From Oscillospiraceae bacterium (GTDB taxonomy: Bacteria > Bacillota > Clostridia > Oscillospirales > SIG627), in NCBI GenBank assembly GCA_015063985.1, contig SVTC01000004.1:57065-121064 (forward strand): a DNA stretch of 64,000 nucleotides, given 5' to 3'. A model generated the notes under the pieces. It was given only the letters and a program-made list of their open reading frames with translations. It did no database searches and had not been told where the DNA came from. Below are positions 46,845-58,386 of this stretch, piece by piece (positions within the stretch are counted from its first letter, which is position 1; each line of letters begins with the position of its first letter). The translations under genes were made by a program, and so were the position numbers.

Positions 46845-48215
46845 ATGCAATATCGTACAGAAAAAGATTCTATGGGCGAGATGCTCGTGCCCGCAGACAG
46901 ATACTGGGCTGCACAGACCCAGAGAAGCCTGCAGAACTTCAAGATCGGCGGAGAGCTTATGCCCCGTGAGATCACCCACGCTTTTGGTATCCTTAAGAAG
47001 GCTGCCGCTATTGCAAACCATTCTCTTAAGCCCGAGAAGATGACCGACGAGAAGCTTGACTTTATCAAGAAGGCGTGCGATGAGGTTATCGAGGGTAAGC
47101 TTTACGATCACTTCCCCCTGGTCGTTTGGCAGACAGGAAGCGGTACACAGTCCAATATGAATGCCAACGAGGTAATTGCAAACCGCGCCAACGAAATGGC
47201 AGGTAAGAAGCTTTGCCATCCCAATGACGATATCAATATGTCTCAGTCCTCCAACGATACATTCCCCACGGCAATGCACATCGCCGCAGTGCTTTCCATC
47301 GAGGATAAGCTTTTCCCCGCCATCGACAAGCTCATCGCTACCTTCAAGAGACTTGAAGAGGAGAACGAGGGCATCGTAAAGAGCGGCAGAACTCACCTTC
47401 AGGACGCAACTCCCATTAAGTTCAGCCAGGAGATCTCCGGCTGGAGAAATATGCTTGAAAAGACCAAGGGTATGCTCAAGCTCTCTCTTGAGGGACTTCA
47501 CGAGCTTGCTCTGGGCGGTACCGCAGTAGGAACGGGTCTCAACGCACCCAAGACCTTCGGCGCAGACGTTGCAAAGGTAGTAAGCGACCTCACCGGTAAG
47601 CCCTTTGTTACCGCAGAAAACAAATTCCATGCTCTTACCTCCAAGGATGAGCTTGTATTCGCTCACGGAGCTCTCAAGGCTCTTGCGGCAAACCTTATGA
47701 AGATCGCCAACGACGTTCGTTGGCTTGCCAGCGGTCCCCGTGACGGTCTGGGTGAGATCTTCATCCCCGAGAACGAGCCCGGCAGCTCCATTATGCCCGG
47801 TAAGGTCAACCCCACTCAGTGCGAAAGCATGACCATGGTTGCCGTTCAGGTAATAGCAAACGACGTTGCGGTGGGAATGGCGGCATCTCAGGGTAACTTC
47901 GAGCTCAACGTATTTATGCCCGTTTGCATCTACAACTTCCTGCAGAGCGTTCGTCTCCTGGCAGACGGTATCGTTTCCTTTAACGATAACTGTGTTGCAG
48001 GCATCAAGGCAAACAGAGAAAAGATGGCCCACAACCTCCACAATTCTCTTATGCTGGTTACCGCTCTTAACCCTTACATCGGTTACGACAACGCTGCCAA
48101 GACCGCGAAGAAGGCATATAAGGAGAACATCTCCCTTAAGGAAGCTTGCGTAGAGCTTGGATTCCTTACCGCAGAGAAATTCGACGAGGTATTCCACCCC
48201 GAGCAGATGGTCTGA
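46845..48215 (+). CDS. fumC: Fumarate hydratase, class II
   Basis: A 456-residue iron-free fumarase that interconverts malate and fumarate. The superfamily signature GSSIMPGKVNPTQCE is intact, and the substrate-site motifs SGTQSNMNANEV and SSNDTFPTAMH are present. AGGAGG precedes the ATG. It lies directly upstream of the hdr-flx-frd genes, so it would supply fumarate for reduction. Use of the class II form avoids an oxygen-labile cluster. Confidence 0.97.
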   Translation: MQYRTEKDSMGEMLVPADRYWAAQTQRSLQNFKIGGELMPREITHAFGILKKAAAIANHSLKPEKMTDEKLDFIKKACDEVIEGKLYDHFPLVVWQTGSGTQSNMNANEVIANRANEMAGKKLCHPNDDINMSQSSNDTFPTAMHIAAVLSIEDKLFPAIDKLIATFKRLEEENEGIVKSGRTHLQDATPIKFSQEISGWRNMLEKTKGMLKLSLEGLHELALGGTAVGTGLNAPKTFGADVAKVVSDLTGKPFVTAENKFHALTSKDELVFAHGALKALAANLMKIANDVRWLASGPRDGLGEIFIPENEPGSSIMPGKVNPTQCESMTMVAVQVIANDVAVGMAASQGNFELNVFMPVCIYNFLQSVRLLADGIVSFNDNCVAGIKANREKMAHNLHNSLMLVTALNPYIGYDNAAKTAKKAYKENISLKEACVELGFLTAEKFDEVFHPEQMV

Positions 48216-48244
48216 TCTTACAGACGAAAATAAAATAATCCAAC

Positions 48245-48269
48245 AGGAGGAAACGCCGATTATTCGGCG
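48245..48269 (+). promoter_or_regulatory. AGGAGG plus hairpin spacer for hdrB
   Basis: AGGAGG (48245-48250) is 26 bases from the hdrB ATG, too far by itself. Between them CGCCGA-TTAT-TCGGCG (48254-48269) forms a 6-bp hairpin that would bring the effective spacing down to about 10 bases. Confidence 0.6.
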
Positions 48270-48276
48270 GTATGAT

Positions 48277-49056
48277 ATGGTATTCAGCTATTATCCGGGT
48301 TGTACCCTGAAAACAAAAGCAAAACAGTTGGATGAATATGCCAGACGCAGTGCCGAGGCGTTGGGCTTCTCCCTTTGCGAGATCCCCGATTGGCAGTGCT
48401 GCGGCGGCGTATATCCTTTGGCGAGGGACGAGGTCGCTACAAAGCTTTCCTCTGTACGTGCCCTTGTCAGCGCAAGAGATGAGGGAAGAGACGTTGTGAC
48501 CCTTTGCAGCGCCTGCCACCACGTTCTCAAGCGCGTTAACGACGATATGGCAAACGACGAAGAGATCCGTAACAAGGCAAACAACTATATGGGTCTTGAC
48601 GTTCCTTATGCGGGAGAGACCAAGGTCTATCACTTCCTTGAGATCCTCAGGGACAAGATCGGCTTTGATAAGCTTAAGGAGGCTGTAAAGAATCCTCTTA
48701 CCGGCAAAAAGATCGGTGCATACTACGGTTGTATGCTTCTCAGACCCGGAAAGGTCATGGAGTTTGACGATCCCGGCGATCCCGGCATAATTGAGGACTT
48801 TATCCGTGCCATCGGAGCAGAGCCCGTTGACTATGCAAACCGTAACGAGTGCTGTGGCGGATACGTCACCCTCGAGGCAAAGAGCCTTGCCAAGGCAAAG
48901 AGCAACGTGATCGTCAACGACGCTGTAGCCAACGGTGCCGAGATGCTCATTACCGCTTGTCCTCTTTGTATGTATAACCTTACAAAGAATGCCGACGGCG
49001 AGCTTCCCGTTTATTATTTCACAGAGCTTCTTGCCGAGGCTCTGGGAGTCAAGTGA
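48277..49056 (+). CDS. hdrB: Heterodisulfide reductase subunit B homologue
   Basis: A 259-residue protein beginning MVFSYYPGCTLK, the standard HdrB start. It has two CCG domains: CCGGVYPLAR with later CSACHH, and CCGGYVTLEA with CPLCMYN. In methanogens these bind two non-cubane 4Fe-4S clusters that reduce CoM-S-S-CoB. Bacterial relatives use other acceptors. It begins a seven-gene hdr-flx run; the 61-base gap after fumC holds the hairpin-spaced ribosome binding site. It overlaps the HdrC frame closely. Confidence 0.93.
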   Translation: MVFSYYPGCTLKTKAKQLDEYARRSAEALGFSLCEIPDWQCCGGVYPLARDEVATKLSSVRALVSARDEGRDVVTLCSACHHVLKRVNDDMANDEEIRNKANNYMGLDVPYAGETKVYHFLEILRDKIGFDKLKEAVKNPLTGKKIGAYYGCMLLRPGKVMEFDDPGDPGIIEDFIRAIGAEPVDYANRNECCGGYVTLEAKSLAKAKSNVIVNDAVANGAEMLITACPLCMYNLTKNADGELPVYYFTELLAEALGVK

Positions 49057-57053: not shown

Positions 57054-57078
57054 TTCGAGATAGCTTTATAATTGTTAT

Positions 57079-57104
57079 AAGACCTCCCTTAAACGGGAGG
57101 TCTT
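57079..57104 (+). terminator. Hairpin between flavoprotein and transporter genes
   Basis: AAGACCTCCC-N6-GGGAGGTCTT, a 10-bp perfect stem without a T-run after it. Probably a partial terminator, RNA processing or stability element that lowers expression of the transporter relative to the enzymes. Confidence 0.6.
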
Positions 57105-57126
57105 GTAAAGAAAGGTATTGAATATC

Positions 57127-58386
57127 ATGAGTATATTTGGAGGAGTCATATCCCTCAGCAATATTTCCACCTTGCTTTTTGTGGTATTTGGTGTTTTAAT
57201 GCTTGGTTATGCCTTGGGAAGGATCACCGTTAAGGGTATCTCCTTGGGCGATGCAGGCGTTTTTATCGTTGCTCTTATTGTTGGAGCCTTGTTTTTCAGT
57301 GTCGGCGACGCGGGTCTTGTTTTTGCAGGCTCCAAGGCGCCCTTCGATTTCAACGAGGGTCTGAGTCTTGTTGAAAGCCTGGGACTTATTCTCTTTGTCA
57401 CCTCTGTAGGCTTTATAGCAGGTCCCAAATTCTTCGGAAACTTCAAGAGAAACTTCAAGTCCTACGTTTTGATAGGAGTTATTATTATTTTGGCGGGCGG
57501 AGTCGGTGCCGCTGCTTGTATCGGAATGGGTGAGGTCGTAGGATACGGCGGAGAGATCACCGATCAGGACGGCTTTGTTGCTATGATCGTCGGACTTCTT
57601 TCCGGATCTCTTACCTCCACTCCCGCATTTGCCGCAGCTAAGGCTACCGTTGCCCAGCAGTACCAGGGTCTTGTATCCGTAGGCCACGGTATTGCGTATA
57701 TCTTCGGTGTTGTCGGCGTTGTTCTCTTCGTACAGCTTATTCCCAAGCTTTCCAAGGCTAACATGGAAGAAGAAAGAGCAAAGCTTGTTATCAAGGAAGA
57801 AGGCGCAAAGAAGACCTTCGCAGGAAAGCTTTTCCACCTGGATCATATGGGTATAGCGGCATTTTCCTTTGCTGCGATCTTGGGCTCCCTTATCGGTCAG
57901 ATAAAGATCCCTCTGTCCTCTGCCGGACTTTCCGGAACCTGCTTTTCCTTGACCACCACCGGCGGATGCCTGCTGGTGAGCCTTGTGCTCGGTCATTTTT
58001 CCAGGATCGGAAGCCTTTGTATTATGCCCGAGCAGTCCACTCTCAAGCTTTTCAGAGAGCTTGGCTTGGTTCTGTTCCTTGTGGGTGCGGGTATCCCCGG
58101 CGGTGCGGAGTTCGTTGAGAACTTTGACGTTATGTACTTTGTATACGGAATCATTATGACCCTGTTCCCCATGGTCATCGGCTTCCTCTTTGCAAAATAC
58201 GTTCTCAAGCTCAGCCTTCTCAATAACCTTGGTTCTATCACCGGTGGTATGACGTCTACTCCTGCTCTCGGTACTTTGATCAACACAGCAGGAACCGAGG
58301 ACGTGGCAGGTGCTTATGCATCCACTTATCCCGTTGCCCTTATCGCGGTTGTTCTGGTCAGCCAGTTCTTGATTCTTTTGTTCTGA
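57127..58386 (+). CDS. AspT/YbjL-family (aspartate-alanine exchanger type) transporter
   Basis: A 419-residue membrane protein with the duplicated AspT/YidE domain: VTSVGFIAGPKFF with LLSGSLTSTPAFAAA in the first half, and RELGLVLFLVGAGIPGG with GSITGGMTSTPALGTL in the second. The two TrkA-C domains that usually sit between the halves are absent. Family members exchange dicarboxylates and amino acids, including succinate exporters of Corynebacterium. Its place after a fumarate-reductase cluster suggests succinate export or fumarate/aspartate uptake. The ATG at 57127 follows GAAAGG. Confidence 0.85.
   Translation: MSIFGGVISLSNISTLLFVVFGVLMLGYALGRITVKGISLGDAGVFIVALIVGALFFSVGDAGLVFAGSKAPFDFNEGLSLVESLGLILFVTSVGFIAGPKFFGNFKRNFKSYVLIGVIIILAGGVGAAACIGMGEVVGYGGEITDQDGFVAMIVGLLSGSLTSTPAFAAAKATVAQQYQGLVSVGHGIAYIFGVVGVVLFVQLIPKLSKANMEEERAKLVIKEEGAKKTFAGKLFHLDHMGIAAFSFAAILGSLIGQIKIPLSSAGLSGTCFSLTTTGGCLLVSLVLGHFSRIGSLCIMPEQSTLKLFRELGLVLFLVGAGIPGGAEFVENFDVMYFVYGIIMTLFPMVIGFLFAKYVLKLSLLNNLGSITGGMTSTPALGTLINTAGTEDVAGAYASTYPVALIAVVLVSQFLILLF

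What the first reader, a model, noticed from the sequence alone, without database searches (positions are those of the whole stretch)
46845..58386. Candidate soluble, electron-bifurcating fumarate reductase: fumC + hdrBCA-flxDCBA + frd-like pair + AspT transporter
Seen: ten genes in one direction, mostly overlapping, from fumarase through HdrBCA, FlxD, two Fe-S subunits and an NAD(P)-binding FlxA, into a 2Fe-2S/4Fe-4S subunit and an FrdA-like flavoprotein. No FrdC/FrdD anchor and no DsrC or hydrogenase is present. Known: FlxABCD-HdrABC of Desulfovibrio takes NADH electrons and HdrA bifurcates in studied complexes; thiol:fumarate reductase of methanogens joins an SdhA/SdhB pair with HdrB-like chemistry. 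Inferred: NADH oxidation here could drive both ferredoxin reduction and fumarate reduction, saving energy lost in simple fumarate respiration. I know of no characterised enzyme with this exact make-up.
Basis: partly seen in the sequence, partly recalled or inferred. Interest (0 to 1): 0.93.

Follow-up and report, generated by a model that had tools for sequence, protein, structure and literature searches.

The report
Electron-splitting soluble fumarate reductase operon
A bacterium of the Clostridia carries an operon, with the same nine-gene core as many relatives, whose predicted soluble enzyme would likely split electrons from NADH between ferredoxin and fumarate, a scheme already proposed in print for one succinate-making thermophile and, as far as was found, not yet tested on a purified enzyme.

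Summary
In detail: fumC, hdrBCA, flxDCBA, frdB, frdA and an AspT-family transporter lie in one direction at 46845-58386, bracketed by a promoter-like site and a terminator-like hairpin. The core hdrBCA-flxDCBA-frdBA is not unique: FrdA relatives occur in 54 of 391 sampled genomes of the class. Of 133 fetched neighbourhoods (124 distinct), 95 hold the core in this order, 1 holds it permuted, and 37 are cut by contig ends. Fumarate-site residues are invariant, HdrA keeps both residues proposed to mark bifurcation, the covalent-FAD His is Asn, and no quinol anchor passes its cut-off. FrdA co-varies with its eight partners, hardly with the transporter. The arrangement and the bifurcation idea are already published for Pseudoclostridium thermosuccinogenes (PMC7282089), so this is a new member of a proposed kind for which I found no purified enzyme. 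Most likely it couples NADH oxidation to fumarate and ferredoxin reduction; that step is inferred. Against a simple Rnf link, the Rnf family is depleted among carriers (26 of 54, versus 264 of 337 non-carriers).

The parts
46506..46530 (+). terminator-like hairpin after the upstream MatE gene
   Evidence: 11-pair stem followed by T run; pattern match only
46673..46701 (+). promoter-like site before fumC (TTGACA-17-TAAAAT)
   Evidence: 11 of 12 matches with TG before the second hexamer, the best in the scanned stretch; 16 sites found against 9.6 expected, so pattern match only
46845..48215 (+). fumC, class II fumarase
   Evidence: TIGR00979 720.9 bits, over the cut-off 664.75
48277..49056 (+). 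hdrB-like subunit with two cysteine-rich (CCG) sets
   Evidence: PF02754; TIGR03288 139.2 bits, under the cut-off; both Cys sets in 31 of 31 rows
49053..49460 (+). hdrC-like subunit, two [4Fe-4S] motifs
   Evidence: PF13183; 8 Cys in 39 of 39 rows; GTG start, an ATG lies 15 bases further on
49476..51461 (+). hdrA, FAD and Fe-S subunit, predicted bifurcation site
   Evidence: NF040770 801.1 bits, under the cut-off 1100; aligns with five distinct solved HdrA sequences; K413 and E359 in 44 of 44 rows
51452..51898 (+). flxD (MvhD/FlpD family)
   Evidence: PF02662 185.9 bits
51880..52860 (+). flxC-like Fe-S subunit
   Evidence: PF13183; named by position
52860..53891 (+). flxB-like, AsrA/ShyB-type Fe-S subunit
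   Evidence: PF17179; NF040829 201.4 bits, under the cut-off
53891..54718 (+). flxA, AsrB/ShyC-type NAD(P)- and FAD-binding subunit
   Evidence: PF00175, PF00970, PF10418
54741..55415 (+). frdB-like subunit: [2Fe-2S] plus two [4Fe-4S] motifs, no CCG domain
55428..57053 (+). frdA-like flavoprotein
   Evidence: PF00890; best NCBIfam model TfrA 332.7 bits, under the cut-off 718; best Foldseek match E. coli FrdA 1kf6_A; catalytic residues in 53 of 53 rows
57118..58386 (+). AspT-family transporter, possible succinate exporter
   Evidence: PF06826; next gene downstream in 75 of 114 assessable loci
58393..58422 (+). terminator-like hairpin after aspT
   Evidence: 13-pair stem followed by T run; pattern match only

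Best explanation
This operon most likely encodes a soluble NADH:ferredoxin,fumarate oxidoreductase: a Flx-Hdr module that would oxidise NADH at FlxA and split the electrons at the HdrA flavin, one to ferredoxin and one to fumarate through a predicted FrdBA partner. Predicted route: NADH to FlxA, then FlxB/FlxC and FlxD, then the HdrA FAD; the low-potential electron leaves by the HdrA ferredoxin domains to ferredoxin, and the high-potential electron passes HdrC/HdrB and the FrdB clusters to the FrdA FAD, where fumarate becomes succinate. The predicted sum is 2 NADH + fumarate + oxidised ferredoxin to 2 NAD+ + succinate + two-electron-reduced ferredoxin. FumC would supply fumarate from malate, and the AspT-family carrier may export succinate. 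Shown here: the genes, their order, the cofactor and catalytic residues, their conservation and co-variation. Inferred: association of the subunits, the electron path, bifurcation, and NADH rather than NADPH.
For: (1) All nine genes in each of the 96 neighbourhoods long enough to tell (91 distinct), 95 in one order and 1 permuted. (2) FrdA distances co-vary with the eight core partners at r 0.83-0.92 and with AspT at only 0.21. (3) The equivalents of E. coli FrdA H232, E245, R248, R287, H355 and R390 are invariant in 53 of 53 rows (residue numbers recalled). (4) The equivalents of HdrA K409 and E356, proposed to separate bifurcating from non-bifurcating proteins (PMC12054007, passages), are present in 44 of 44 rows. 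(5) FrdB's third cluster motif has four Cys in 49 of 49 rows, so it is not the three-Cys [3Fe-4S] site beside a quinone pocket (the meaning is recalled). (6) The TfrB model matches FrdB, HdrC and HdrB in three separate parts (18-100, 116-220, 251-487; 33-40 bits, under the cut-off of 385), so a known fumarate reductase joins these modules. (7) Sdh_cyt and menD reach their cut-offs in 0 of 54 carriers. (8) In P. thermosuccinogenes an operon of the same make-up is about 4-fold up under CO2 limitation, and H2 abolishes succinate formation, which its authors read as ferredoxin coupling (PMC7282089).
Against: No biochemical test was found in the papers opened. The Rnf family (PF03116), the expected user of reduced ferredoxin, is depleted in carriers: 26 of 54 versus 264 of 337 non-carriers, Fisher p 1.5e-5, so ferredoxin would need another outlet; [FeFe]-hydrogenase is found in 52 of 54. 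HdrB keeps both complete noncubane-cluster Cys sets, which would also suit a disulfide substrate. HdrA, HdrB, FrdA and the TfrB-like parts stay under the curated cut-offs. This genome has one sub-threshold, partial Sdh_cyt match (24 of 25.8 bits, C25). In P. thermosuccinogenes the up-regulation is not significant for all subunits, and Na2S had the opposite effect to H2.
Confidence: 0.62

Rival explanations
1. A plain soluble NADH:fumarate reductase: the same subunits form a complex, but all electrons go to fumarate and ferredoxin is not reduced.
For: 28 of 54 carriers lack a match to the Rnf family that would exploit reduced ferredoxin. Work on Blautia luti assumes a NADH-dependent fumarate reductase without bifurcation (PMC12773636, passages; whether its frdAB belongs to this family was not tested).
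Against: HdrA keeps K409 and E356 equivalents in 44 of 44 rows and all Cys of its ferredoxin-like motifs, which a non-bifurcating role would not need.
Confidence: 0.13
2. Flx-Hdr reduces a disulfide (with or without ferredoxin), and the thiol or a small carrier then feeds a separate FrdBA; the two parts are co-expressed but not one complex.
For: HdrB has both CCG Cys sets intact in 31 of 31 rows. PMC7282089 writes that Flx-Hdr moves electrons to ferredoxin 'and thiols'. Methanogen thiol:fumarate reductase uses thiols (recalled).
Against: FrdB has no CCG domain that could oxidise a thiol; no disulfide carrier gene is in the operon; FrdA and FrdB co-vary with Hdr and Flx as closely as with each other.
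Confidence: 0.14
3. The FrdA-like flavoprotein acts on another substrate, such as aspartate (NadB-like) or another unsaturated acid.
For: FrdA is under every curated cut-off tested and also matches L-aspartate oxidase models (265.9 bits, cut-off 452.75).
Against: All six fumarate-site residues are invariant in 53 of 53 rows; the position of the aspartate-recognising Glu of NadB (E121, recalled) is His in 53 of 53; the genome has a separate NadB-like gene with Glu there (416.6 bits, itself a little under the cut-off); fumC is the upstream neighbour in 68 of 85 assessable loci.
Confidence: 0.06
4. The complex works in reverse: a succinate dehydrogenase driven by electron confurcation.
For: Hdr-type bifurcation can be reversible in principle (recalled).
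Against: The FAD-linking His of complex II is Asn in 53 of 53 rows, and loss of that link is recalled to abolish succinate oxidation in E. coli FrdA. The matching operon goes with succinate formation in P. thermosuccinogenes, and this genome has GTP-PEPCK for the reductive branch.
Confidence: 0.05

Closest known systems
'Succinate operon' of Pseudoclostridium thermosuccinogenes (CDQ83_RS03365 to RS03315; PMC7282089, passages and one section read; it cites a 2019 preprint by Koendjbiharie and van Kranenburg, not read)
   Same: Same make-up by the published list: fumarase, seven Flx-Hdr genes, two fumarate reductase genes, then a hypothetical protein called a potential succinate transporter; same proposed coupling of fumarate and ferredoxin reduction.
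   Different: Different organism; its sequence was not in hand, so homology and exact gene order inside the Flx-Hdr part were not tested here.
FlxABCD-HdrABC of Desulfovibrio vulgaris (Ramos et al. 2015, recalled and cited in PMC7282089)
   Same: Seven-gene NADH dehydrogenase/heterodisulfide reductase module.
   Different: Here it is fixed to frdBA, and no DsrC gene is in the operon; the HdrBC electrons are predicted to go to fumarate.
Thiol:fumarate reductase TfrAB of methanogens
   Same: FrdA is nearest to the TfrA model; the TfrB model spans parts like FrdB, HdrC and HdrB.
   Different: Here those parts are separate subunits joined by HdrA and an NAD(P)H-binding module; FrdA is under the TfrA cut-off.
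Quinol:fumarate reductase / succinate dehydrogenase (complex II, including type E with SdhE)
   Same: Flavoprotein fold and fumarate-site residues; HdrB also matches the SdhE anchor-subunit model of methylmenaquinol:fumarate reductase (136.6 bits, cut-off 500).
   Different: No membrane anchor gene in the unit, no FAD-linking His, four Cys in the third FrdB cluster motif, an extra N-terminal part of about 88 residues and most of the C-terminal domain absent in FrdA.

Membership tests
Flx-Hdr-Frd 'succinate operon' kind (P. thermosuccinogenes) | fumarase + seven Flx-Hdr genes + two frd genes + transporter in one operon | tested here: met
   against the published list
Flx-Hdr-Frd 'succinate operon' kind (P. 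thermosuccinogenes) | sequence homology to the P. thermosuccinogenes proteins | not tested
   its sequence did not appear in the loci or protein lists returned
Flx-Hdr-Frd 'succinate operon' kind (P. thermosuccinogenes) | ferredoxin reduction coupled to NADH:fumarate reduction | not testable with these tools
   needs enzyme assays; only a proposal in PMC7282089
FlxABCD-HdrABC | all seven subunits, HdrA with the proposed bifurcation Lys and Glu | tested here: met
   K413 and E359 in 44 of 44 rows
Quinol:fumarate reductase (FrdABCD) | membrane anchor subunits in the unit | tested here: not met
   no such gene in the operon; Sdh_cyt over the cut-off in 0 of 54 carriers; PF02300 and PF02313 were not searched genome-wide
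Quinol:fumarate reductase (FrdABCD) | His that links FAD covalently | tested here: not met
   Asn128 in 53 of 53 rows
Quinol:fumarate reductase (FrdABCD) | fumarate-site residues of FrdA | tested here: met
   six of six invariant in 53 rows
Thiol:fumarate reductase (TfrAB) | TfrA over its curated cut-off | tested here: not met
   332.7 bits, cut-off 718
Thiol:fumarate reductase (TfrAB) | TfrB with the CCG domains fused to the FrdB part | tested here: not met
   separate FrdB, HdrC and HdrB
L-aspartate oxidase (NadB) | Glu that recognises aspartate (E. coli E121, recalled) and the NadB cut-off | tested here: not met
   His199 in 53 of 53 rows; 265.9 of 452.75 bits; separate NadB-like gene
AspT-family succinate exporter | family membership | tested here: met
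   PF06826; the family includes succinate exporters (PMC9527358, abstract in the listing)
AspT-family succinate exporter | succinate as substrate | not testable with these tools
   needs transport assays

The most novel reading that the evidence does not exclude
Fumarate reduction in many Clostridia that lack a classical quinol anchor, including a genome titled Ruminococcus flavefaciens, is done by a nine-subunit soluble complex that bifurcates NADH electrons to fumarate and ferredoxin: electron bifurcation with fumarate as the high-potential acceptor. About half of the carriers show no Rnf and would discharge the ferredoxin as H2, so making succinate would raise, not lower, hydrogen output.
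Probability: 0.45. Interest if true: 0.82.

Novelty: new member of a known kind. Interest (0 to 1): 0.6.

Why it matters
If the mechanism holds, many gut and rumen Clostridia gain a reduced ferredoxin for each succinate without quinones or a membrane enzyme, which would change ATP and hydrogen budgets in models of gut and rumen fermentation. It would show how a soluble enzyme uses the large potential gap between NADH and fumarate that plain soluble fumarate reduction wastes. The wide, strict conservation found here turns a one-organism proposal into a testable family and points to further organisms from which the enzyme could be purified.

Tried and rejected
Considered and rejected: NadB (substrate Glu replaced; separate NadB-like gene); a membrane quinol enzyme (no anchor in the unit; Sdh_cyt and menD over the cut-off in 0 of 54); the transporter as part of the complex (exchanged among loci; r 0.21); the early TTG starts of hdrB and frdB. 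A general Rnf link was expected and not found. The FrdB structure model was unusable (mean pLDDT 52.3). The FrdA model is moderate (72.0, several active-site loops under 50), so I use it for the overall fold only. MqnA/D-type genes (PF02621) gave weak matches over the cut-off in 6 of 54 carriers, none in this genome, so quinones are not excluded in those. The menD model hits 41 of 54 but always under its cut-off, probably related TPP enzymes. A paper search on two named carrier genera gave no succinate data that I opened. The P. thermosuccinogenes sequence itself did not turn up.

Dropped rows: one search left out proteins shorter than 0.8 of the window protein. Kept of those found in the 53 class-sample neighbourhoods: FrdA 52 of 53, FrdB 48 of 51, HdrA 43 of 46, HdrC 38 of 42, HdrB 30 of 41; the row counts in the text add the window itself. 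The HdrB loss comes mostly from contig ends and from my choice of start codon against an over-long window ORF. One search used a 0.85 filter. Papers opened, passages only: PMC6776011, PMC12054007, PMC12773636, PMC7325909, PMC12578642, PMC7174568; PMC7282089 passages and section 8. All other papers were seen as search listings.
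Full report
What is there. The window is part of contig C20 of a 2.24-Mb genome (G000, 90.7% complete). On the + strand, fumC, hdrB, hdrC, hdrA, flxD, flxC-like, flxB-like, flxA, frdB-like, frdA-like and an AspT-family transporter follow each other and match the expected families. 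FumC is over its curated NCBIfam cut-off; the best models of the Hdr, Flx and Frd proteins match but stay under their curated cut-offs. Up to five junctions overlap and the others are short gaps. The best promoter-like site of the scanned stretch (11 of 12 matches) stands before fumC, and terminator-like hairpins stand before that site and directly after aspT. These are pattern matches; they fit one transcription unit of about 11.7 kb, for which there are no transcript data.

How common it is. With FrdA as query, 54 of 391 sampled genomes of the class carry a relative (E up to 1e-60; lowest identity about 61%). Of the 80 named neighbourhoods, 55 hold hdrBCA-flxDCBA-frdBA in this order and 25 are cut by a contig end. 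Of 53 neighbourhoods from the class sample, 40 hold it, 12 are cut and 1 (L090) has frdBA in front; a wider fetch shows that this one also has all nine genes. The two sets share some contigs: the 133 loci hold 124 distinct FrdA genes, and the 95 complete ones 90 distinct, so with L090 the count is 96 of 96 assessable loci, 91 of them distinct. FumC is the direct upstream neighbour in 48 of 50 and 20 of 35, and AspT the next gene downstream in 41 of 63 and 34 of 51 (named and class sets). In the class sample, FrdA distances correlate with those of the eight core partners at r 0.83-0.92 and with FumC at 0.89, but with AspT at 0.21. Shared descent alone gives part of these correlations, but the low value for AspT shows that a neighbour can escape it; the transporter is an exchangeable neighbour.

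FrdA. The fold model, of moderate confidence, matches E. coli FrdA best. All six fumarate-site residues are invariant (53 of 53 rows). The His that binds FAD covalently in complex II is Asn in all rows. From recalled work on E. coli FrdA, losing that link keeps fumarate reduction and abolishes succinate oxidation, so a one-way fumarate reductase is predicted. The residue at the aspartate-recognising Glu of NadB (recalled) is His in all rows, and the genome has its own NadB-like gene with Glu there. FrdA has about 88 extra residues at its N-terminus and lacks most of the complex II C-terminal domain.

FrdB and the wire. FrdB has a [2Fe-2S] motif and two complete four-Cys motifs, and its double-cluster part resembles RnfC. 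Quinol enzymes have a [3Fe-4S] cluster at the quinone side (recalled), so this looks like an electron wire rather than a quinol site. The TfrB model of thiol:fumarate reductase matches FrdB (positions 18-100), HdrC (116-220) and HdrB (251-487) in separate parts, at 33-40 bits, weak but significant and well under its cut-off. One known enzyme thus seems to join these three modules to a TfrA flavoprotein, which makes HdrB/HdrC the likely donor of FrdB here (inference).

Bifurcation. HdrA aligns over nearly its whole length with five distinct solved HdrA sequences. Lys and Glu equivalent to K409 and E356, described as a proposed mark that separates bifurcating from non-bifurcating proteins (PMC12054007, passages), are kept in 44 of 44 rows. 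With standard potentials (fumarate +30 mV and NAD -320 mV recalled; ferredoxin taken as -420 to -500 mV), the coupled reaction would release roughly 33-48 kJ per mol, so it is feasible; this is arithmetic, not a measurement.

Physiology of carriers. Sdh_cyt and menD reach their cut-offs in 0 of 54 carriers (the controls ring over the cut-off in 7 of 14 genomes each); this genome has one partial Sdh_cyt match under the cut-off. Six carriers have weak MqnA/D-type matches, not this one. FrdC and FrdD families were not searched genome-wide. [FeFe]-hydrogenase is found in 52 of 54. This genome has RnfC over its cut-off, GTP-type but no ATP-type PEPCK, and two Lyase_1 matches, FumC and one other that I did not identify. 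GTP-dependent PEPCK is also named for P. thermosuccinogenes. A result against the simplest story: the Rnf family (PF03116) matches in 26 of 54 carriers and in 264 of 337 non-carriers (my count from the tables; Fisher p 1.5e-5, not corrected for relatedness or genome completeness). Either the ferredoxin goes to hydrogenase in many carriers, or the enzyme does not always bifurcate.

What is known. Among the papers I opened from the searches, only PMC7282089 describes the operon (passages and one section). It gives the same gene list in P. thermosuccinogenes, an expression rise of about 4-fold under CO2 limitation (not significant for all subunits), and the proposal, first made in a cited 2019 preprint that I could not read, that fumarate reduction is coupled to ferredoxin reduction. 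Blautia luti is reported to make succinate with a fumarate reductase assumed to be NADH-dependent (PMC12773636, passages); whether its frdAB is of this family was not tested. I found no purified enzyme. The finding is therefore a new member of a proposed kind. This work adds the breadth of the family, the invariant residues, the co-variation, the missing quinol anchors and the Rnf result.

Verdict.

Noticed in passing
54 carrier genomes of the class sample: The Rnf family is depleted among carriers of this fumarate reductase (26 of 54) compared with non-carriers (264 of 337); three carriers of one family (f47) and this genome have weaker matches than most.
   Followed up: partly
window 57118-58386 and relatives: The AspT-family gene is next to frdA in 75 of 114 assessable loci, but its distances hardly follow those of FrdA (r 0.21), as if different members of the family were swapped in.
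   Followed up: partly
L112 and L143: Records titled uncultured Treponema sp. and Bacteroidaceae bacterium carry the operon's frdA at 83% and 78% identity; mis-binned MAG contigs are more likely than transfer.
   Followed up: no
window 58402-60178: Two neighbouring ORFs of similar start (298 and 303 aa) look like a tandem pair of PHP-domain proteins; only the first was scanned (PF02811).
   Followed up: no
G000:C39:5267-12019: Three [FeFe]-hydrogenase-family genes lie within 7 kb of each other in this genome, and a fourth is on C11.
   Followed up: no
L090 / L181 (G269): The most distant carrier has the order frdBA-hdrBCA-flxDCBA, a permutation that keeps all nine genes.
   Followed up: yes
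L074: hdrA matches in two separate pieces, either a frameshift or a split alignment.
   Followed up: no
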